Shown one piece after another: positions 41 through 20,470 of a stretch of 20,470 bases of DNA (its first letter is position 1; each line of letters starts with the position of its first letter). The stretch is taken from the IMG/VR virus record IMGVR_UViG_3300029813_000553, positions 1 to 20,470 of that record, one strand, 5' to 3'. The notes beneath the pieces were generated by a model. The model was not told the origin of the DNA. It did not search any database and worked only from the letters and a program-made list of their open reading frames with translations. Source of the DNA: a virus. Both the position numbers and the translations under genes were made by a program.

Positions 41-2074
41 ATGGAAGCTGAAGAAATCAAAAAAGTTGAAGAAACCAAGAAGGTTAAGAAAATAAACTTT
101 TTTCAAGATAAATCTGAAGAGCAGCATATCTCCTGGGTAGAAAAACAGGTGGGCGACCATCCTGTTGTCAAGACCTTTCATGGCCATTGGAAGGAACTCA
201 TCGAATGGGAAGACGGTAACCAGTTTTCGATTTGGGACCCTAATTCTCGTGCTGTTGTCCCCGTAACCTTGAATACCAGGGAAAAAATGGTTGTCGTAAA
301 CCTTATGAAGCCTTTAAATGAGACCCTTGAAGGCAAGATTAATTTCAATCACAGTATTATAGGAACCCCAAATTCAGGAGAGCAGAAAGATATTAGGGGA
401 GCTCAGGTTGCTACCAAGCTTCTCGATTATAACGATACAGTAAATGACGTGGAGGAGCTCTACGAGGATGCTAAATATGATCTTTTACGGCCTGGTATCT
501 CATGTATAAAATGGTACTGGGATAAGTCTCATTATGCCACTATCAAAAAGACTGACAGTGAAAATGGCGTAAAGGCGAAAGCTGGTGAGTGTGTTGGCGA
601 AGTTGTTTCTATTTTTAATATTCGTCCGGACCCGACAGCAAAGAGCAGGGAGAAGTGTCGTTGGATCATAGAAGTAAAGGAAGTTACAAAAGAAGAGATT
701 AAGCGAGTTTACAAAGTAAAAGATGATTGGTTTGAAGCTACCGGTGCTCGCAAAAAGGATAAAAAAACCCAGAAAGCAGGGCATGAAACAAAGGCTGCCC
801 TTATACAGAAATACAAGGGGATGCACGAACCACTTGATGAAAAGGACAAAGATGAGCCAACTTATATCGTAAAAGAGTTCTGGGAAAGACCATCCGACCT
901 TTATCCTGACGGCAGATTTATCGCAAGCAGTGAGGGAGACGTCCTTGCTGCAAAAGAAAATCCTTCTCCTCATGGAGATCTCCCCTATTACTTTTTTATC
1001 TACAAAAAGAGAGGAAATTCTTTCTGGCCTAGGGGTCCCCTTTATTATGTCCAGGGTATCCAGCGTGAATTTAACCGGATGATCTCAATACAGTCTGAGC
1101 ACATAGAGTCCTGGCGACCCAAGATGGCTGTAGGAAAGGGAGCAATAAAACGTGCAGGAGCATTCACAGTTGATGCCTTTGAGATGGTTGAGGTGGACTT
1201 CTCTCGCGGAGAACCGAGAACCATCAACATGCCGGAACTTTCTCCTCAAGTTACGATGTATAGAGATTTCCTGGAAGGTGCTGTTGGCTCGGTTTCAAAC
1301 GTGCATGAAGTGAGTTACGCTAGGCTTCCCCAGTATGCCTCTCGAGCTCCGGCTTCTCTCTATTCCATGATGCTTGAGCAGGAAAATGTAAAGCTCACTC
1401 CTATGGTGAAGCGTATAAATAAAACACTTAAACAGATGGCTAGATTTAGACTTGAGATCATGGACCAGCATTATACAGCAGAACGGATGATTAAAGTTGT
1501 TGGCCAACACAAAGAAGCTACTATAGAATATTTCTCCAACTCTGATTTAAGCAAGAACTTCGATGTTCGCCTTGAGACAGGCGTAAGCCTTCACCAGTCT
1601 CCTACGATCCAAACTCAGCTTCTTATACAGCTCTGGAGAGAGGGCATTTTGACCGAGCAGGATAGAGTTAAGGTTCTAAGGTCAATTAACCTTGGGACAG
1701 CAGAACATGAAATTAGGCGTGATATGGCAGACACAGAGCGTGCTCTCAGAGAAAATCAATCCTTTATTGACGATACCTATGAAAAGAAACGTGAAGAGGG
1801 AGGCGTTACTGTCTACTGGAACGATGATCACGAGCTTCACCTGGATTATCATACGAATTTTATAAAATCAGAAGAGGCACAGCGTTGGGATGATGATAAG
1901 TGGAGAGCTTTTGACCTTCACATTTATGAGCATTTTAGATGGCTTTCCTTCGTTAGGAAGGCTATGGCGGCACAAATACCGCCTCCAACAACTAGGCCAA
2001 CCAGAGCTCCAGGAATGGGGACTCCTCCGGCTGGACCCGAAGAGCCCCAAATCGAGGGAATTCAAAGAGGATGA
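41..2074 (+). CDS. Portal protein (P22-like)
   Basis: This 677-residue protein is read as the dodecameric portal at the capsid vertex through which DNA is packaged and ejected. Evidence is the length (close to that of P22-type portals), the first position in a portal-scaffold-capsid order, and a characteristic stretch near residues 192-224 (FNIRPDP followed by a W-I-I-E-V-K-E-V-T segment), which matches the wing/clip region of podovirus portals as I recall it. The middle is rich in aromatic and charged residues with long amphipathic helices after about residue 430. The C-terminal 30 residues are Pro/Gly/Thr-rich and probably disordered. The ATG at 41 has an AAGGA site at 29-33. The stop overlaps the next start (ATGA at 2071-2074), so the following endonuclease gene is probably translationally coupled to it. 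Confidence 0.85.
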   Translation: MEAEEIKKVEETKKVKKINFFQDKSEEQHISWVEKQVGDHPVVKTFHGHWKELIEWEDGNQFSIWDPNSRAVVPVTLNTREKMVVVNLMKPLNETLEGKINFNHSIIGTPNSGEQKDIRGAQVATKLLDYNDTVNDVEELYEDAKYDLLRPGISCIKWYWDKSHYATIKKTDSENGVKAKAGECVGEVVSIFNIRPDPTAKSREKCRWIIEVKEVTKEEIKRVYKVKDDWFEATGARKKDKKTQKAGHETKAALIQKYKGMHEPLDEKDKDEPTYIVKEFWERPSDLYPDGRFIASSEGDVLAAKENPSPHGDLPYYFFIYKKRGNSFWPRGPLYYVQGIQREFNRMISIQSEHIESWRPKMAVGKGAIKRAGAFTVDAFEMVEVDFSRGEPRTINMPELSPQVTMYRDFLEGAVGSVSNVHEVSYARLPQYASRAPASLYSMMLEQENVKLTPMVKRINKTLKQMARFRLEIMDQHYTAERMIKVVGQHKEATIEYFSNSDLSKNFDVRLETGVSLHQSPTIQTQLLIQLWREGILTEQDRVKVLRSINLGTAEHEIRRDMADTERALRENQSFIDDTYEKKREEGGVTVYWNDDHELHLDYHTNFIKSEEAQRWDDDKWRAFDLHIYEHFRWLSFVRKAMAAQIPPPTTRPTRAPGMGTPPAGPEEPQIEGIQRG

Positions 2075-2553
2075 AAAATTATAGAGACAAAAAGTGGCTT
2101 GAGAATAAATATTTGGATGAAAAATTATCTTTTACTGAAATTGCTAGAATTTGCCCAGTAAGCAGGACTCAGATATGGCGATTACTGAAAAAATTCAATA
2201 TAAAAACAAGAAAGAATTATTCTGAAGAGATAAAACAAAAACAGAGAGAACATAAAATTGGAGAAAAGAATCCTAATTGGAAAGGTGGAACAGTGATTAA
2301 TAGTAATGGTTATGCTTTAATTTTGAAGCGCAATCATCCGCATTCAAATAACCGTAGCTATGTCAAGAGAAGTAAACTTGTCATGGAAAAATACCTTGGC
2401 AGGTATCTTGAGCCGGAAGAAGTTGTTCATCATGAAAATGAAATAAGACATGATGATAGAAAAGAAAATCTTCGACTTTTTGAAAGCAAGGGTAAGCATA
2501 TGGTTTTTCACAATAAGATGAGACAAAATATGTTACTTGAAATAAAAGACTAA
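2071..2553 (+). CDS. HTH-HNH homing endonuclease, copy 1
   Basis: This 160-residue protein is a freestanding homing endonuclease of the HNH_3 type. Residues 9-47 form a helix-turn-helix segment (W-L..K-Y..E-K-L-S..E-I-A, then an S-R-T-Q-I-W recognition helix). A WKGG motif lies at 70-73. The nuclease core is at 118-147, with His120-His121, Asn133, His143 and His147 as the expected metal and catalytic positions. It is a paralogue of the genes at 8487 and 9805. The His of the EHRLVME motif in copy 3 is replaced here (KRSKLVME). Its start codon overlaps the portal stop, and a GAGGG site lies at 2054-2058 inside the portal gene. The DNA is AT-rich compared with the portal: 19 G+C in 60 bases at 2161-2220, against 31 in 60 at 1081-1140. 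This fits independent arrival. Confidence 0.88.
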   Translation: MKNYRDKKWLENKYLDEKLSFTEIARICPVSRTQIWRLLKKFNIKTRKNYSEEIKQKQREHKIGEKNPNWKGGTVINSNGYALILKRNHPHSNNRSYVKRSKLVMEKYLGRYLEPEEVVHHENEIRHDDRKENLRLFESKGKHMVFHNKMRQNMLLEIKD

Positions 2554-8486: not shown

Positions 8487-9098
8487 GTGATACCAACGGA
8501 GAAACTTTATAAGAATAGAAGTTGGCTTAAAGATAAGTATGTTGAAGAAGGATTGTATTTATGGCAGATAGCAGAATTATGTAATGTTAATAAACAAACA
8601 ATATGTAATTGGCTGAAAAAACATGAGATAAAAGCAAGGAAGGGCGGAGTTCCTAAAGGAACTAAATTTACAGAAGAACATAAACTAAACATGAAAAAAG
8701 CTTGTAAACATCTTACTGGCAAAGAGCATCATTGTTATGGTAGGAAGCACACAGAAGAGACAATAAAAAAGATGAGTGAACTTCAACAGGGAAAAAATAA
8801 TTCATTTTGGGGCAGGAAGCATACAGATAAAACACGAAAAATTATAAGCATAAAGTCTTGGAAGGGAGGAAGGAGAATTGATGCAGATGGATATGTTAGA
8901 ATACGCATACCCTTTCCTGTTAGTAAAGAAATAATGGAACACAAGTTAATTATGGAAGAAATTCTTGATAGACAACTGAAATCAGCAGAAATTGTTCATC
9001 ATAGAAATGAGATTAGAGATGATAATCGACCAGAAAATCTTTTAATTTGTACACCAAGCGAACATAAGTTAATCCATAATAAGGAGAAATTATCATGA
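8487..9098 (+). CDS. HTH-NUMOD3-HNH homing endonuclease, copy 2
   Basis: This 203-residue paralogue of the genes at 2071 and 9805 uses a GTG start at 8487 with AGGAGG at 8475-8480. Domains in order: helix-turn-helix at about 12-51 (W-L-K-D-K-Y, W-Q-I-A-E-L-C-N-V, T-I-C-N-W-L-K-K), two NUMOD3-like DNA-contact repeats at about 78-101 and 102-122 (each with a Y/F-W-or-Y-G-R-K-H-T core), WKGG at 125-128, and the HNH core at 169-197 with His171-His172, Asn184, His193 and His197. All expected nuclease residues are present. It is AT-rich (16 G+C in 60 bases at 8581-8640). Its last codons contain the AAGGAG site (9081-9086) used by the adaptor gene, and its stop overlaps that gene's start. Confidence 0.88.
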   Translation: MIPTEKLYKNRSWLKDKYVEEGLYLWQIAELCNVNKQTICNWLKKHEIKARKGGVPKGTKFTEEHKLNMKKACKHLTGKEHHCYGRKHTEETIKKMSELQQGKNNSFWGRKHTDKTRKIISIKSWKGGRRIDADGYVRIRIPFPVSKEIMEHKLIMEEILDRQLKSAEIVHHRNEIRDDNRPENLLICTPSEHKLIHNKEKLS

Positions 9099-9805
9099 CA
9101 TTGGCGGAGCTCAGGACAGCGGTTCGCAACCTCACCCGAGAGTGGTCGGACGACTCTGGCACGCTCTTTCCCTCAGATAATGTGCTCCTCGACTTCTATA
9201 TTAATTTTGCATGTGAGGATGTTGTCTTGGATCTTGTTGAGTTCATGAAGGAAGATTTTCTCACCTATGAGGATATTTCCCTTGCTGCTGATGACTTTGA
9301 TTATGACCTTACGGCAGAGTGGCTTATGATGTGGAGCTTGCAGAGGAAAGTTACAGACAAAAGCTATAGGGATATTCCTTATATACCGGTAAATGACAGA
9401 CCTGATTATGTCGGAGAGACGGCTGAAGATCCCGTAGGGTTTTTTCTAAAGGGTACGACAATCATTTTTGTACCTACGCCTTCAGCAGCTAAAACAGACT
9501 ATGCTCGGGCTTGGATTGTTGTTCCTGAAGCAGCTTCAATGGCCGATACTGGACCGGTTTATATCCCCAGGATGGCCCATAAACTTATTCCCCTTGATGC
9601 TGCAATTCTAATTGGATATATGAATGACAGGGAAGTTGGGAGTATTGTTGCGCTTTATAAGCTACAGCATAAAAGAGTGATCGATTCCTTAACCAATCGA
9701 ATACAGCAGCAACCTCAGTTTATAAGGCCGTCTGTTTTTAGCAGAACCTCTGGAGACAGAAGAGACAAGGCTTTCTACGATAAGGGTGGCCCCTTCGACA
9801 GATAA
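9095..9805 (+). CDS. Head-tail adaptor (connector) protein
   Basis: This 236-residue protein is read as the adaptor ring that docks under the portal and carries the tail nozzle, comparable in role to T7 gp11 or P22 gp4. The N-terminal helices carry the usual [15 protein letters not shown] start and a long [16 protein letters not shown] helix. A mid-protein strand with [14 protein letters not shown] is common in these connectors. The C-terminal helical part ([18 protein letters not shown]) and a basic tail complete the pattern. Position just before the nozzle gene agrees. It is bracketed on both sides by endonuclease genes that overlap its start and its stop. Confidence 0.75.
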
Positions 9806-10308
9806 TGAAATACAAAGATAAAGATTGGCTTTACCAGATGTATTGGGTAGAGAGATTATCTACTGTAAAAATTGCTGAATTATGCAATATAAGCAGCCAA
9901 ACAATCTTACGGTGGCTAAGAAGATTTAAAATAAAAACAAGGACAATAAGTGAAGCATGTATGGGCAGAGTTCCTTGGAATAAAGGAATTGAAACACCAG
10001 AAGAAGTAAAGCAAAAAATAAAAAAAGCACAAGTAGGCTCTAAAAGCAAAAATTGGAAGGGGGGTAGGCTTAGAACATCTGAGGGATATATTTTGATTTG
10101 GAAGCCTGAGCATCCTTTTGCAGATAAAAAAGGATATGTTTTGGAACATCGCTTAGTGATGGAAAGAATTTTAGGCAGATATTTGAAAAGAGAAGAAACC
10201 CTTCATCATAAAAACGGAATTAAAGATGACAATAGGCCAGAAAATCTAAAATTATTTTCATCTCATGGTCTTCACTTGGCATTGCATAATGAACAAAGAG
10301 GACAATGA
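9805..10308 (+). CDS. HTH-HNH homing endonuclease, copy 3
   Basis: This 167-residue protein has the same plan as copies 1 and 2: helix-turn-helix at 8-46, one degenerate NUMOD3-like segment at about 58-78 ([11 protein letters not shown]), WKGG at 84-87, and an HNH core at 114-161 with the full EHRLVMER helix, His134-His135, Asn147, His157 and His161. It starts inside the adaptor stop codon (TAATG at 9803-9807) and has no good ribosome binding site, so it probably depends on reinitiation. It ends with an ATGA overlap with the nozzle gene. Base composition is AT-rich (19 G+C in 60 bases at 9841-9900, against 27 in 60 in the adaptor at 9301-9360). Confidence 0.88.
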
Positions 10309-13085: not shown

Positions 13086-14483
13086 ATGGCTGAAATATCT
13101 AACCTTGAACAATCTTTTGATGAAATAAAAAATAAATCCAGAGTTTCCACACCTAATCCTTGGCTTGACCCTAAATTCAACCGGATTGACCCTTGGGGAA
13201 AAGAGCCTGGGATAAGGCTTGAAGATGTACCTGAGCGTTTAGGGTTATTGCAACAAGGCCAGTATTCGCATGTTTCAGGCAACCGCTTCACAGATTTGCA
13301 GGATACGCCCAGTAATTATGGTAAAAACGAACAGTTTGTAAAAACCGATGGAGTAGGAAAGCTCACTTTTGATTGGCCTTACTGGATAAAAAAAGGCTCG
13401 AATATTTACTATAAAAAGGGTTTTGTGGGCGTAGGCCTTTCGGGTCCTACCGTCAGGTTTCATACTTATGGAGATAATATCCTAGATGGTGCTGTCACCA
13501 TAAATGAAAGTGGAAGGGATAAGGATTTTCGTGTTGAAGGCGACACTGAATTAAACTTACTTTTTTGTGATGCTTCTACTGATAGAGTTGGTGTTGGACT
13601 CAATGCTCCTTTATGTCGTACGCACATAAGGGGTAATGTGTGTGCTTCCTACGCAGGTCTTAATCCTGATACTATCCTATTGATAGAGAATGACGATAAT
13701 GTAGTTTTCCAAATGCAAGCTGCTACTGATGGAGAAGCTCGTATAGTCTTTGCCGATGACAATTATAATCCACCTGCCGGAAGAATCATGTATAATTTCA
13801 CTTATGACTACATGGACTTTACTGTTGGGACTAATATTCTACTCAAGCTTGAGGACTACACTGGCTGGCATATTGTTTACCATAAGGGTATCTGGATTAA
13901 TAGCACTGGCGCAGGAGCCTGTATAGTCGATTCTCATAATTCAGATGCTTATTTTGAAGTGGAAGAGGATAACGTCCTTAAATGGACAATGGGTTTTGAT
14001 TATTCGGATAGTCTTAAATTTCAAATATGTGAAGGCTTGCCAGGTACGAATGTTAGATTTGAGATAGAGCCTGGCGTAGCAGGTTTAATTAATCTCTATC
14101 AAGATGTTGGAATTCGGGATAGTCAAGATCTTCGCTTCTATGGAGCCGATGATCATTACGTAGGCTTTAAAGTTCCGGCTGGCTTAATTGGTGATCAGAT
14201 CTGGCTTCTTCCGAGCGCAGACGGCCCGGCAAATGAAGCCCTGGGAACAGATAATTCAGGGAATCTCATCTGGCGAACACATGACGAGCTTGCAGGATTT
14301 GTAGCCAATAAACATATAGACTGGACTAGCACAGCTTCTAATTTCTCCACAAGTGGGACTGTAAAAATAGCTAGTATAAAATCAGGGGTGGATCAAGCAG
14401 CAGCAGGGGCAGCAGTAAATGAGCTCTGGAAAACCGCGAGTCATGCTAGCCTGCCTGATAACGTTGTTTGCATTGGAGTATAA
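13086..14483 (+). CDS. Tail fibre-like protein
   Basis: This 465-residue protein starts immediately after the nozzle stop, with AAAAGGGG as its site. Residues about 130-190 (V-T-I-N-E-S-G, D-F-R-V-E-G-D-T, F-C-D-A-S-T-D-R-V-G-V-G) carry a motif set that recurs in fibre and spike proteins of many environmental phages. Residues from 405 on (F-V-A-N-K-H-I-D-W-T-S, ending N-E-L-W-K-T, L-P-D-N-V-V-C-I-G-V) form a C-terminal module also common in such proteins. The first 60 residues are helical and polar, suited to attachment to the tail. The middle is strand-rich with repeated Gly/Asp turns, as in trimeric fibres. No peptidase or intramolecular chaperone motif is visible. Confidence 0.7.
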   Translation: MAEISNLEQSFDEIKNKSRVSTPNPWLDPKFNRIDPWGKEPGIRLEDVPERLGLLQQGQYSHVSGNRFTDLQDTPSNYGKNEQFVKTDGVGKLTFDWPYWIKKGSNIYYKKGFVGVGLSGPTVRFHTYGDNILDGAVTINESGRDKDFRVEGDTELNLLFCDASTDRVGVGLNAPLCRTHIRGNVCASYAGLNPDTILLIENDDNVVFQMQAATDGEARIVFADDNYNPPAGRIMYNFTYDYMDFTVGTNILLKLEDYTGWHIVYHKGIWINSTGAGACIVDSHNSDAYFEVEEDNVLKWTMGFDYSDSLKFQICEGLPGTNVRFEIEPGVAGLINLYQDVGIRDSQDLRFYGADDHYVGFKVPAGLIGDQIWLLPSADGPANEALGTDNSGNLIWRTHDELAGFVANKHIDWTSTASNFSTSGTVKIASIKSGVDQAAAGAAVNELWKTASHASLPDNVVCIGV

Positions 14484-16114: not shown

Positions 16115-17166
16115 TGTCAACTCCGGAAGGACAATTCAACAGAAATATCAAAACATTAACTAATTTTCTTATGCAAAAACAACTCCTTGGCCAACGAATG
16201 GGAGGCTATGGACAACTCGAGACCCAGAGGCATGAAAATATGATGACGAGAATGAAGGCAGCCTTCACCGATCAGCTTTCTCGAGATCCAGTGATGCAAC
16301 GCCATAGGGCTCTTGTTTTTAAAGCACAAAAAGAAGGAAAAGATGTGGCTTCCCTGGTAGAGGCTATGAAAAAAGATGCCATGAAGATTGCTGAGGTAGC
16401 CTTTACTACCGCGACTCAGAAGCCCTGGACGAAAGAGACTGCTCAGTCTGCTACTCTTTTAACTGAAAGCGGAGTCATGGATATGGTAGGTCAGGCTGCT
16501 GTGGGGACGAGACAGAAAGAACAAATTCAGAAAGTGGCTATACCTGGATTGGCTATAAGAGGTGCTGAGGCCATGACTGATGCTGAGAGAGTAAGGCTCA
16601 AGGGAGAAGAGTTGGAGCTTCAGCGAAAGAAGCTAAAACAAAAACCGGCTGAGGAACAGAATAAAGAGATGAGAGCTATTGTCAAGGATACGATAAATTT
16701 CTTGGAGGCTGAAGGAGTTAAGGGTAAAGATATTAACGAGCAGATGAAGGCTCTTTTTGGATCAGGCAAAGTTCCTGATCCTCTCTCTCCAAAGAACAGA
16801 GGCCAGGCCTTTACTTGGCTTATGGAGATTTGGATTAATCTTGCAAAAGGAAAAGCTCTTACTGCTAATGAAGAGAAATTTCTTATAAACGTAAGGAATA
16901 CCAGAGCCATTGAACCGGAGGCTGGTATAACTGGAATAACTGGTGTTGGTGAAGAGGTTGCTCCAACTGGCATTGACAGAGGAGGATTAATTTCTCCTAA
17001 GACAGGACTTACTCCTGGACAGGAAACAGGTGTTACTGAAGCTGGTGATCAAGTTATAAATCAAAGGCTTCTTGAGATGATGACCCAGATGTATATGGAG
17101 GAAGGAAAACTTGATGAAGCGACAGCTCGACAGATGGCTCAAAAACTTATAGGTCAACTTAGATAA
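16114..17166 (+). CDS. Helical internal virion (ejection) protein candidate
   Basis: This 350-residue protein is almost wholly helical and polar, with many Gln, Lys, Glu and Met and no membrane segment or signal peptide. Segments such as K-K-D-A-M-K-I-A-E-V-A and E-E-L-E-L-Q-R-K-K-L-K-Q suggest coiled coil at about 150-190, a globular helical part at 190-260 (Q-A-F-T-W-L-M-E-I-W), a Gly/Thr/Pro linker at 270-310 and a C-terminal helix pair. Size and composition suit a podovirus internal core or ejection protein. It overlaps both neighbours by single bases (TAATG at either end), so all three should be made in step. Confidence 0.6.
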   Translation: MSTPEGQFNRNIKTLTNFLMQKQLLGQRMGGYGQLETQRHENMMTRMKAAFTDQLSRDPVMQRHRALVFKAQKEGKDVASLVEAMKKDAMKIAEVAFTTATQKPWTKETAQSATLLTESGVMDMVGQAAVGTRQKEQIQKVAIPGLAIRGAEAMTDAERVRLKGEELELQRKKLKQKPAEEQNKEMRAIVKDTINFLEAEGVKGKDINEQMKALFGSGKVPDPLSPKNRGQAFTWLMEIWINLAKGKALTANEEKFLINVRNTRAIEPEAGITGITGVGEEVAPTGIDRGGLISPKTGLTPGQETGVTEAGDQVINQRLLEMMTQMYMEEGKLDEATARQMAQKLIGQLR

Positions 17167-20100
17167 TGGCAATAGAAGAACCCTGGAAAGGCGCACCTTA
17201 TTTAAAGAAGAGGCTTGATGCGCCTGGTCAGCTTCCAGAAGAACCTCTTGGTATGGAGGATATGCTTAGAGGTTTGATTCGTCAGGATCTCGGTTTATCT
17301 CAAAACATTCCAACCAACCTTAGGAATCTTGTTCAACAGGATCTCCGTCAACAAGGTTATGAAATAGTGGGTGAGCTTCCAACAAAAAAAGATTTAGCAG
17401 AAAGGGAAGTTGAGAGATCCAGGAGGCTTGCTGAAGCTCAAAAGGGAGTCGGTGAATATATAGAAGAACCTAGTTTCTGGCAGAATTTAAAAGATGTTTC
17501 TATAAAAGTAGCAAAGGGTGAAGTGGATCCTTTTGGTCTTGTGGTTCAAGGCCTTGTCAGGGGAATGTCTTTTGGGAATATAGATCCTCACACGATAATT
17601 GAGAAGATTTCAGGCAAGAAGGGGTTTGCTGAAGCTGCCAGGAATATTGACAGAGAATTAGTCCCAGAAGAAATTCAAAGATTAGTAACTACTCCAAGTG
17701 AAATTGCCGGAATGCTTGTGCCTCTGAGCTTATTATTTAGTGGTGCTGCCCTACCAGCAGTAACTATGACGAAAATTCCTTTTCTGCAAGCAGTGGCTCA
17801 GGGTACAATGGTTGGTATAGCCACAGGATTGTTAAGGAAGCCTGAGAGGGAAAGTGCTTTAAATAGGCTTAAGCAGGTCCCGGGTGATGTTTTATTTTTT
17901 GGTGCGCTCAGTGGTGCGATTGTAACTGTCCAACAGATGGCTAGAATAGCCAATTATAATAGGGCAGCCAAGGTTTATAAAAAAGTAAACTGGGAAGCTC
18001 CTCAAGTTCCTCCGGATGGCAAATCTTTTACTGCTAAACAGATGAGGGATCTCTTCAATAAAATGGACAGGAACGCATCTGGAGCAGGAATAAAATTAAC
18101 AGCAGAAGAAGCAGAGATATTAGAAACTATGAAGGAAACAGGGGGATGGAAGAATGCGGTTAGAAGTGGATGGATAAAACCCAGGGCAGAATGGATCACT
18201 ACAGGTGAACCAGGCTTTATGCCAAGAGCTCCTAAAATGAAGGATATTTTCAGAGACCCCTCAAAGATTCCTTTCGTTGAGAGACCTCCGGTAGGAGTTC
18301 CTCCAGAGGAAGTTCCGGTTAGGCCTGAGTCTCCACCTACAGAAGTTCGGCCAGCAGCAGCAATTCCTCCGGCAGAAGCCCCATTAGCCAGGCGACCATT
18401 TGAAGCACCACCACCTCCAGAAGTACCCCCTCCACGCCCCACAGCGCCTCTTCCTCCTACAGAAGCACCCCCACCTAGACCAGGAGTTCCACCTGAGCCT
18501 GTACCTGTGCGTCCCGAAGCTGTACCGGCTAAAGTTCCCCCTCCAGCAATTAACATTAGACCAACGGCTGAGGGGGGATGGGTAGTTGATCTTCCTCAGC
18601 CTCCAATAGCTGCGCCTCCTGGATGGATAAGACCAGGGCCTACAATACCGTGGAGGCCGGTTGAGCCAGAGCTTCTTCCTCCGCATGTAAAGCCACCTAA
18701 AGTTATAAAACCTAGAAAGAAGCCTGTCTTCAAAAATCCTTTTTATGAATCAATAAATCAACTAGGGGGAGTAAAACCAAACCCTGATTATCCTTATGCC
18801 GAATTAAAGCAAATCTTTCCTCCAGGATTGATCAGGAAAGATGGGATGCCTATGGATACCCTTGCTCAAGCTATGGCTCATGAGTTCCCAACACTAGAGG
18901 AGGGAGACGTAAAGCTATGGGAGATGGCAGATAACATTAGAAGGGGGACAGCAACTTTCAGAGATGAACGTACCGGAGACGAGCACCTTCCACCCAGGGA
19001 AGAAGTTGAGGCTCAATACCAAGAATTCATGGATCGTAAGCCTGCCGAGATGACGAAGGCAGATTTTAATAGTCAAATAAAAGTTGCTATCAAGGATCTC
19101 AAAACAGGAAATGTTCATAAAGGTAAACCGGAAGAAATTATTCATGCTGATATGTTCACCAGGATACAGAACAAAGGTGTAAAAACTGAAGATATGGAAG
19201 CAGGATTTGTCCTGCCTGGCACTGGACAATTTATTTTCAGCTACGGCTTGAAACCGACTGCGGAAGGAAAGCCTACTCCTGGACCAAAGTATGATCGAGA
19301 AACCTTTCATCGTGAGCTCGTTAAAAAGGCATTGGATAAAGGCGAGCATGTTTCTCCTGAAGTTTTAGCACAACACAAAGTAGACTATCCTGAGCTTTTT
19401 AAAAAGCCGGTTACATTTGAGCCTGGAGATACAGTTGAGTTTGATACTATTACTGGGATAAGAACTGGTGAGATAATAGGCATAAACAAAAAAGAAGGGC
19501 TTGCCAGCATAAGGGATGAACAAGGTATTGCGACTTCCAGGGATCTTGCGGATTTAAGGAAACCAGAGATAGCTCCGGAAGCTGTGCCTAAAGAAGCTCC
19601 GCGAGTAGCTGAAGAATTAGAAAAAGAACCGATTGAAAAAGCTTACCAAAGAGATATTATACCTGTTTATGAAGGGAAAAAAGCGATGGGAGATGTTATT
19701 GCAAATGAGGTTTTTGGGAACTTGGAAGATTTAGAAAAAATTATTCCCAGAGAATTAAAGAAAGCAAAAAACGCTGGTTTAGAAACAATCGTTCATAGAG
19801 AAGATATGGGCGGAGTTATAGGAAATCAAACAACTTTTCTTGTTTATGATTGGGATAAAATAAATAAAATTCTTGATAAATATGAATTGGATATTTCTCC
19901 AGATGTTTTTATGAGAGATTCTATTATAAGAGGTTTTGAACCAGCTACACCACTTAAAAAAGCTGTTGATGAAGCATATAAAATTGCTCCAGAGAGAATA
20001 CCAAGGGTAGCTGAAGCAAAGCCTCCAGTTGTGGCCAAGGAGCCTACCCTCACTGAGATTGAAAAAGTATTTGAAGAGATGGCTATTCCCAGGATTAAGA

Positions 20101-20470
20101 GAGGAGTGCTGGCAGATCAGATAATCAGGAATTATAAACCTGAGAAGGGTCCTTTGAAGACCTACATAAAATCTATCCTTCCAAAAATAACTGAAGAGGG
20201 TGAGCTCAGGGTAAAGCCTACGTTGAAAAGAAAAAGGGCAGAGCGCTTGACTGCGGAAATGGAAGAAGTTGTTCCAGGAAGAGCAGAGAGGCCGGAGGAT
20301 ATATTTGAGAGAGCAGAGGAGGAAGCCAGGGTTCAGAAGATATTTAAGCAGTCAGCCAAGACCGACAGGGAACGCGATATTCTGGACAGGAAGATACTCA
20401 GGGGTCAGAGCTATGATGACATAGGGAAAGCTCATGGAATAACACGTCAAAGAGCAGAGCAGATATTCAA
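17166..20470 (+). CDS. Giant multidomain virion/polyvalent protein with sigma-70-like C-terminal module (partial)
   Basis: The frame is open for 1,101 codons from ATG 17166 to the window edge. Features in order: helical N-terminus (about 55-95); hydrophobic helices at 180-200, 207-223 and 242-256; a proline-rich linker at about 374-520; a helical region with G-L-I-R-K-D-G-M-P-M-D-T near 560, a motif I associate with large polyvalent phage proteins; a KOW/SH3-like barrel at 751-795 (P-G-D-T-V-E-F ... G-E-I-I-G-I); an AT-rich stretch coding for 820-940; a sigma region 2-like segment at 985-1015 (N-Y-K-P-E-K-G-P-L-K-T-Y-I); and a region 4-like segment at 1050-1101 (R-E-R-D-I-L, then D-D-I-G-K-A-H-G-I-T-R-Q-R-A-E-Q-I). 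Gene position suggests a protein ejected with the DNA. The sigma reading is by eye; the domain may continue past the edge. Confidence 0.75.
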   Translation, partial: MAIEEPWKGAPYLKKRLDAPGQLPEEPLGMEDMLRGLIRQDLGLSQNIPTNLRNLVQQDLRQQGYEIVGELPTKKDLAEREVERSRRLAEAQKGVGEYIEEPSFWQNLKDVSIKVAKGEVDPFGLVVQGLVRGMSFGNIDPHTIIEKISGKKGFAEAARNIDRELVPEEIQRLVTTPSEIAGMLVPLSLLFSGAALPAVTMTKIPFLQAVAQGTMVGIATGLLRKPERESALNRLKQVPGDVLFFGALSGAIVTVQQMARIANYNRAAKVYKKVNWEAPQVPPDGKSFTAKQMRDLFNKMDRNASGAGIKLTAEEAEILETMKETGGWKNAVRSGWIKPRAEWITTGEPGFMPRAPKMKDIFRDPSKIPFVERPPVGVPPEEVPVRPESPPTEVRPAAAIPPAEAPLARRPFEAPPPPEVPPPRPTAPLPPTEAPPPRPGVPPEPVPVRPEAVPAKVPPPAINIRPTAEGGWVVDLPQPPIAAPPGWIRPGPTIPWRPVEPELLPPHVKPPKVIKPRKKPVFKNPFYESINQLGGVKPNPDYPYAELKQIFPPGLIRKDGMPMDTLAQAMAHEFPTLEEGDVKLWEMADNIRRGTATFRDERTGDEHLPPREEVEAQYQEFMDRKPAEMTKADFNSQIKVAIKDLKTGNVHKGKPEEIIHADMFTRIQNKGVKTEDMEAGFVLPGTGQFIFSYGLKPTAEGKPTPGPKYDRETFHRELVKKALDKGEHVSPEVLAQHKVDYPELFKKPVTFEPGDTVEFDTITGIRTGEIIGINKKEGLASIRDEQGIATSRDLADLRKPEIAPEAVPKEAPRVAEELEKEPIEKAYQRDIIPVYEGKKAMGDVIANEVFGNLEDLEKIIPRELKKAKNAGLETIVHREDMGGVIGNQTTFLVYDWDKINKILDKYELDISPDVFMRDSIIRGFEPATPLKKAVDEAYKIAPERIPRVAEAKPPVVAKEPTLTEIEKVFEEMAIPRIKRGVLADQIIRNYKPEKGPLKTYIKSILPKITEEGELRVKPTLKRKRAERLTAEMEEVVPGRAERPEDIFERAEEEARVQKIFKQSAKTDRERDILDRKILRGQSYDDIGKAHGITRQRAEQIF

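What the first reader, a model, noticed from the sequence alone, without database searches (positions are those of the whole stretch)
20040..20470. Sigma-70-like module at the end of a giant late-operon protein
Residues 985-1015 look like sigma region 2 (Y-K-P-E-K-G-P-L-K-T-Y-I, compare the usual Y-D-P-x-K-G-x-F-x-T-Y), and residues 1050-1101 look like region 4, with R-E-R-D-I-L and a helix-turn-helix D-D-I-G-K-A-H-G-I-T-R-Q-R-A-E-Q-I. The same polypeptide has membrane-seeking helices and sits in the ejection block. A sigma-like domain delivered inside the virion would let the phage act on host RNA polymerase at the moment of infection, in the spirit of the N4 virion RNA polymerase but by a different route. 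Region 2.3-2.4 seems short or missing, so it may bind polymerase without full promoter recognition.
Basis: partly seen in the sequence, partly recalled or inferred. Interest (0 to 1): 0.8.

Follow-up and report, generated by a model that had tools for sequence, protein, structure and literature searches.

The report
Sigma-like domain in phage ejection protein
A giant phage protein, of a family found inside virus particles and probably injected with the viral DNA, carries a piece that looks like a bacterial sigma factor (the part that steers RNA polymerase to genes), so the phage may redirect the host's transcription machinery the moment it infects.

Summary
The window is a 20,470-base phage fragment ending inside a giant late-gene protein (17166-20468, at least 1101 aa). 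Its end is a genuine sigma-70 region-4-like domain. The window scores TIGR02937 E=1e-8 (below its cut-off). Two full-length relatives pass Pfam's own cut-off for Sigma70_r4 (26.9 and 33.9 bits against 24.1), and the fold search returns almost only sigma factors. The "region 2" half is not proven: alone it has no family match and adds about 4 bits. It is, however, a block under strong purifying selection, joined to region 4 by a fast-evolving linker. A relative (L002, 1797 aa) supplies the missing end: an ~800-aa C-terminal domain shared by about 85 phage and prophage loci. One such protein was found in virions by mass spectrometry (Cellulophaga phi18:3 gp123), and many carry polyvalent-protein effectors. 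Three divergent lineages carry the sigma-like module N-terminal to this carrier. Best reading: an ejected polyvalent virion protein with a new effector, a sigma4-like domain that engages host RNA polymerase and/or promoter DNA on entering genomes. Delivery is inferred from relatives; RNA polymerase binding is untested. New variant of a known kind; the paper that defined polyvalent proteins never mentions sigma.

The parts
17166..20468 (+). Giant late-gene protein, at least 1101 aa, cut by the contig end; full-length relative is L002:3436-8826 (1797 aa)
17703..17759 (+). Hydrophobic stretch aa 180-198 (possible membrane-seeking helix)
   Evidence: Kyte-Doolittle 1.79
17874..17933 (+). Second hydrophobic stretch aa 237-256
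   Evidence: Kyte-Doolittle 1.41
18546..19580 (+). Conserved N-terminal block aa 461-805, no family match
   Evidence: 74% identical to L002, dN/dS 0.20; no Pfam match
19599..19999 (+). About 134-aa segment present in the window and absent from L002, lying between two 'PRVAE' linkers (RVAE at aa 813 and 947): modular swap next to the sigma-like module
20043..20213 (+). Region-2-like block aa 960-1016, with YKPEKGPLKTYI at 990-1001; N-terminal part of region 2 missing
   Evidence: TIGR02937 match starts at profile position 40; alone no sigma match; 90% identical to L002, dN/dS 0.09
20214..20285 (+). Variable linker aa 1017-1040
   Evidence: 67% identical, dN/dS 0.40; low confidence in the AF2 model of L002
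20286..20468 (+). Sigma-70 region-4-like domain aa 1041-1101, truncated by the contig end in the recognition helix
14834..17166 (+). Four small late ORFs (112, 188, 119, 350 aa) directly upstream and syntenic with L002:1172-3436; candidate partner ejection or tail proteins
   Evidence: no convincing Pfam or PHROG match for the ones tested

Best explanation
The giant protein is an internal virion ('ejection') protein of the polyvalent type. Its C-terminal ~800 aa (seen in L002, beyond the window) is the conserved virion/carrier domain. Its variable N-terminal part carries effector modules that enter the host with the phage DNA. Here the effector is a sigma4-like domain, preceded by a degenerate region-2-like block. 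Once inside, the sigma4-like domain most likely docks on host RNA polymerase (beta-flap) and/or binds -35-like DNA on the entering genome, recruiting or re-targeting host polymerase for the first round of phage transcription. Shown here: the domain identity, its purifying selection, its recurrence beside the same carrier, and (from a public record) virion presence of a carrier homologue. Inferred: packaging of this protein, entry into the cytoplasm, polymerase binding and promoter choice.
For: Sigma signal: TIGR02937 E=1.1e-8 (window) and 4.7e-10 (L002); Sigma70_r4 above Pfam's cut-off in L002 and L106; no other HTH family scores better. AF2 region-4 part has pLDDT 84-91, and Foldseek against PDB returns almost only sigma factors (SigH prob 0.99; sigmaA region 4-flap chimera prob 1.00, TMt 0.57). 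Selection: the region-2-like and region-4 blocks are the best conserved of the stretches compared (dN/dS 0.09 and 0.05) around a loose linker (0.40). Carrier: 80 viral loci, 79 in a second, overlapping scan, 14 genome loci. phi18:3 gp123, homologous over the carrier, is annotated from MS/MS. 11 of 38 carrier proteins hold ART-PolyVal, 6 LPD1, 4 LPD5, plus MuF_C, InPase, ddrB-ParB, methyltransferase. Recurrence: sigma module in L002/window, L064 and L106; in L002 and L106 it sits directly before the carrier. The 45-kb L002 record has no other sigma-family match, and its only ORFs over 700 aa are the giant protein and a 934-aa late gene matching the window's 926-aa ORF, so host RNA polymerase is probably needed.
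Against: No experiment on this phage. The window itself stays below the Pfam and NCBIfam cut-offs (truncated). Region 2 is not significant alone, and its helices have AF2 confidence of only about 55-71, so melting and -10 recognition are doubtful. At the -35-reading positions only part of the E. coli sigma70 residues is kept (VTRERIRQ against ITRQRAEQ). Only 3 lineages of about 93 carrier records have the module. Sigma-70-like promoters in the L002 genome are no more frequent than in shuffles, which neither helps nor hurts.
Confidence: 0.55

Rival explanations
1. The sigma4-like helix-turn-helix is used only as a DNA-binding tether: inside the capsid or in the ejection channel it holds the phage genome end or helps DNA passage, with no role in transcription.
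For: Region 2 is degenerate; an ejection protein has an obvious use for DNA binding; HTH folds are versatile.
Against: The best family is sigma region 4 in every lineage, including sigma28-type matches in L106 (PRK05911 E=7.6e-7). The block before it is also conserved and keeps sigma-like order and spacing. Most carrier relatives lack any detectable sigma-type HTH, so it is not a general requirement for ejection.
Confidence: 0.25
2. The module is a competitor: it occupies the beta-flap or clamp of host RNA polymerase, displaces host sigma factors and shuts off host transcription or frees polymerase for the phage, without directing promoter recognition itself.
For: Degenerate region 2 with an intact region 4 fits binding without initiation. 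Polyvalent effectors are proposed to hit host RNA polymerase; T4 Alt is the prototype cited (PMC5512222).
Against: The recognition helix is retained and conserved, which a pure competitor would not need. No direct data.
Confidence: 0.13
3. Chance or decaying resemblance: an inherited sigma fragment with no present function.
For: Found in few carriers; below family cut-offs in the window.
Against: Strong purifying selection at dS about 0.6 and recurrence in three divergent phage lineages.
Confidence: 0.04

Closest known systems
Polyvalent proteins of phages and conjugative elements (Iyer et al. 2017, PMC5512222)
   Same: Giant multidomain protein in the late gene block. Its carrier family repeatedly holds ART-PolyVal, LPD1, LPD3, LPD5, MuF_C, InPase, ddrB-ParB and methyltransferase modules. 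Swappable modules between proline-rich linkers.
   Different: The effector here is a sigma4-like domain; the word sigma does not occur in that paper. No classic polyvalent effector was found in the window or L002 protein itself.
N4 (Schitoviridae) virion RNA polymerase
   Same: Giant virion protein ejected with the DNA that starts early transcription (N4 facts from the abstracts of PMC4496689 and PMC12633501).
   Different: No RNA polymerase domain in the full L002 protein. This would steer host polymerase instead of bringing its own.
Sigma-70 family factors, ECF and FliA types, including phage-encoded ones (e.g. phiEco32 gp36 / SU10 gp32, PMC4281155)
   Same: Region-4 sequence and fold; region order 2-linker-4 without region 3, as in ECF sigmas.
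   Different: Covalently part of a giant late virion-type protein instead of a separate early or middle gene; region 2 is degenerate.
Minimal one-HTH sigma factors and T4 gp33-type proteins of jumbo phages (PMC7824862)
   Same: A single sigma-type HTH proposed to contact the RNA polymerase beta-flap.
   Different: Those are described as separate proteins recruiting host polymerase; this one is fused to a virion-protein domain and predicted to arrive in the particle.

Membership tests
Sigma-70 region 4 (Pfam PF04545) | Score above Pfam's curated cut-off (24.1 bits) | tested here: met
   Met by L002 (26.9 bits) and L106 (33.9 bits). The window copy is cut at profile position 40 of 50 and scores 18.8.
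Sigma-70 region 4 (Pfam PF04545) | Region-4 fold | tested here: met
   AF2 pLDDT 84-91 for that part; PDB hits include sigma region 4 with TMt 0.57-0.60.
Complete sigma-70 family factor (TIGR02937) | Score above NCBIfam cut-off (42.9 bits) | tested here: not met
   Best 39.3 bits (L002 module); window 36.3.
Complete sigma-70 family factor (TIGR02937) | Recognisable region 2 (clamp binding, -10 melting) | tested here: inconclusive
   No match alone; no region-2 family among the Pfam matches; shuffles reach the score; but conserved with dN/dS 0.09.
Complete sigma-70 family factor (TIGR02937) | Binds core RNA polymerase and directs initiation | not testable with these tools
   Needs biochemistry.
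Polyvalent proteins | Several disparate domains, including known polyvalent modules, in one giant protein | tested here: met
   Met at the level of the carrier family: 11 of 38 with ART-PolyVal and others. In the window/L002 protein only the sigma-like domain is recognisable.
Polyvalent proteins | Carried in the virion and delivered to the host | tested here: inconclusive
   A carrier homologue, phi18:3 gp123, is a structural protein by MS/MS according to its record; not testable for this phage; entry into the cell is inferred.
N4-type virion RNA polymerase | Single-subunit RNA polymerase domain | tested here: not met
   No RNA polymerase family among Pfam matches up to E=1 in the full L002 protein. 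The genome-level PF00940 search had no ringing control.

The most novel reading that the evidence does not exclude
A bipartite sigma factor (divergent region 2 plus region 4) is delivered covalently inside an ejection protein and forms a holoenzyme with host core polymerase on phage promoters as the DNA enters: a virion-borne sigma factor.
Probability: 0.3. Interest if true: 0.85.

Novelty: new variant of a known kind. Interest (0 to 1): 0.62.

Why it matters
Phages that do not bring their own polymerase must take over host RNA polymerase from the first gene. Known virion-borne solutions are whole polymerases (N4, phiKZ, P23-45) or modifying enzymes (T4 Alt). A sigma-type domain carried in the particle would be a third route, and it makes the question of how entering DNA recruits polymerase directly testable with a small, purifiable domain. 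It would also add sigma4 to the list of polyvalent-protein effectors.

Tried and rejected
Searching annotated phages for the sigma module: no relatives in INPHARED (only a chance-level hit). Close-relative scans of IMG/VR with each module found only the same few contigs. Region 2 as an independently significant match: rejected as unproven. Pairwise hhalign against single E. coli sigmas gave meaningless alignments; a six-sigma profile was used instead. Sigma-70 promoter scan of the L002 genome: 45 found against 39 expected, uninformative. Sigma hits elsewhere in carrier phages (e.g. G030, G046, G067, G076): separate small ORFs, not part of the giant protein. Genome-level PF00940 search: its control did not ring, so it is not used as evidence. 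L002 contig circularity: no terminal overlap, although the reading frame of the tail-fibre-like gene was checked across the ends; completeness is not claimed. hmmsearch with the four-module profile found no further copy in the 14 genome loci.

Full report
WHAT IS THERE. The window is an entire IMG/VR fragment holding late genes of a podovirus-like phage: portal (PHROG 156, E=7e-31), major head protein, a head-closure-like protein, then a run of small ORFs and a giant ORF at 17166-20468 that is still open at the contig end. The L002 counterpart of the portal matches the P22-type portal family.

REGION 4 IS REAL. The last 186 residues score against TIGR02937 (sigma70-ECF superfamily) at E=1.1e-8 and against Pfam Sigma70_r4 at E=0.0012. 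The closest relative, L002 (45-kb contig, 1797-aa full-length protein, 62% identical over the shared part), scores E=4.7e-10 and passes Pfam's cut-off for Sigma70_r4. A region-4 profile made from six E. coli sigmas, fetched from the MG1655 record, hits all four phage modules; shuffles reach the real score 0, 0, 0 and 1 times in 5000. AF2 predicts the region-4 helices with pLDDT 84-91. Foldseek against PDB returns almost only sigma factors, though with modest E-values (best 0.012, prob 0.99; sigmaA region 4-flap chimeras prob 1.00). Against viral structures the named hits are mostly phage sigma factors. The L064 model is weaker: its best hit is an ECF sigma at E=0.29.

REGION 2 IS ONLY SUGGESTIVE. 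The region-2 half alone gives no sigma match in the window or in L002. The L002 region-4 half alone gives 35.5 of the 39.3 bits. Shuffles reach its score in 2% to 46% of trials. In favour: the TIGR02937 match runs on co-linearly from profile position 40, the F/Y-x-P-x-x-G motif is at the right place, and the block is strongly conserved. Between window and L002 the region-2-like block has dN/dS 0.09, region 4 has 0.05, and the linker between them 0.40, against 0.20-0.33 for the other parts of the protein. Two constrained blocks joined by a loose linker is the build of an ECF-type sigma, but it is also the build of any two-domain module.

THE CARRIER. Residues 981-1797 of the L002 protein (beyond the window's end) match PHROG 22602 'virion structural protein' (E=2e-12) and find 80 IMG/VR loci, 79 in a second, overlapping scan, and 14 bacterial genome loci, almost all as the C-terminal part of 1200-3500-aa proteins with variable N-terminal parts. 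The Cellulophaga phage phi18:3 member is annotated as structural from experimental MS/MS. Among 38 members scanned, 11 hold ART-PolyVal and others hold LPD1, LPD3, LPD5, LPD37, MuF_C, InPase, ddrB-ParB, methyltransferase and helicase domains. In the Pseudoalteromonas phage Y3 (Poorviridae) the carrier is fused to an ADP-ribosyltransferase. So the carrier belongs to polyvalent proteins, and the sigma-like module occupies the place of an effector.

RECURRENCE. A sigma-family search of 95 carrier records (a few duplicated) found the module inside the carrier protein in L002, in L064 (= L089) and in L106; other sigma matches were separate small ORFs. The L064 and L106 modules are only 30% identical to each other and 15-19% to L002, yet both score to sigma families; L106 is sigma28-like (PRK05911 E=7.6e-7). 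In L106, as in L002, the module sits directly N-terminal to the carrier (L106 module aa 1137-1332, carrier from 1372; L002 module aa 836-993, carrier from about 981). In L064 about 790 residues separate them.

MECHANISM. Shown: domain identity, constraint, repeated fusion to a carrier whose homologue is in virions, and no second sigma-family match in the 45-kb L002 record. Inferred: the protein is packed in the head, enters with the DNA, and the sigma4-like domain meets host RNA polymerase before any phage gene is expressed. Given a weak region 2, recruitment through region 4 (beta-flap and/or -35-like DNA) is more likely than full promoter opening by this module alone. The main rival is a DNA tether in packaging or ejection.

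NOVELTY. The paper defining polyvalent proteins does not contain the word sigma. Searches of 5.39 million open papers for virion, packaged, injected or encapsidated sigma factors returned none, and other searches gave no precedent among the titles and abstracts listed. Subscription literature and preprints were not searched, so precedence is not proven. Precedents for the principle are N4 and P23-45 virion RNA polymerases and T4 Alt.

Noticed in passing
window 2071-2553, 8487-9098, 9805-10308: Three ORFs with an N-terminal HTH-like start and an HNH-like H-H...N...N motif (homing-endonuclease style) sit between structural genes; at the same places the L002/L177 genome has the neighbours close together and no such ORF of 120 aa or more. 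Family not tested.
   Followed up: partly
window 19599-19999 (aa 812-945): A ~134-aa segment of unknown function present in the window and absent from L002, bounded by repeated PRVAE linkers: a recent module gain or loss right beside the sigma-like module.
   Followed up: partly
L064 aa 945, L106 aa 1002: EELIH where part of the carrier family has a HExxH zincin-like peptidase motif (LAHExxHALD in the A4 consensus): possibly inactivated processing peptidases. Four of 38 carriers match the Pfam ATLF zincin-type model.
   Followed up: no
L177 13105-14553 and L002 2-850: Tail-fibre-like protein with YadA-like repeats (TAIGYxAG...) in L002, largely different from the window's 13086-14483 counterpart: possible receptor-binding module swap.
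   Followed up: no
L002 8810-9376: Gene directly after the giant protein is a transglycosylase (SLT, E=6.5e-14), followed by a DUF5675 gene; consistent with a cell-entry or lysis block.
   Followed up: partly
carrier family (A4, A5 members): The ~800-aa carrier domain matched no Pfam model although it occurs in about 85 phage/prophage loci; one member also matches Acb1 (anti-CBASS) weakly and one a Strawberry-notch-type helicase.
   Followed up: partly
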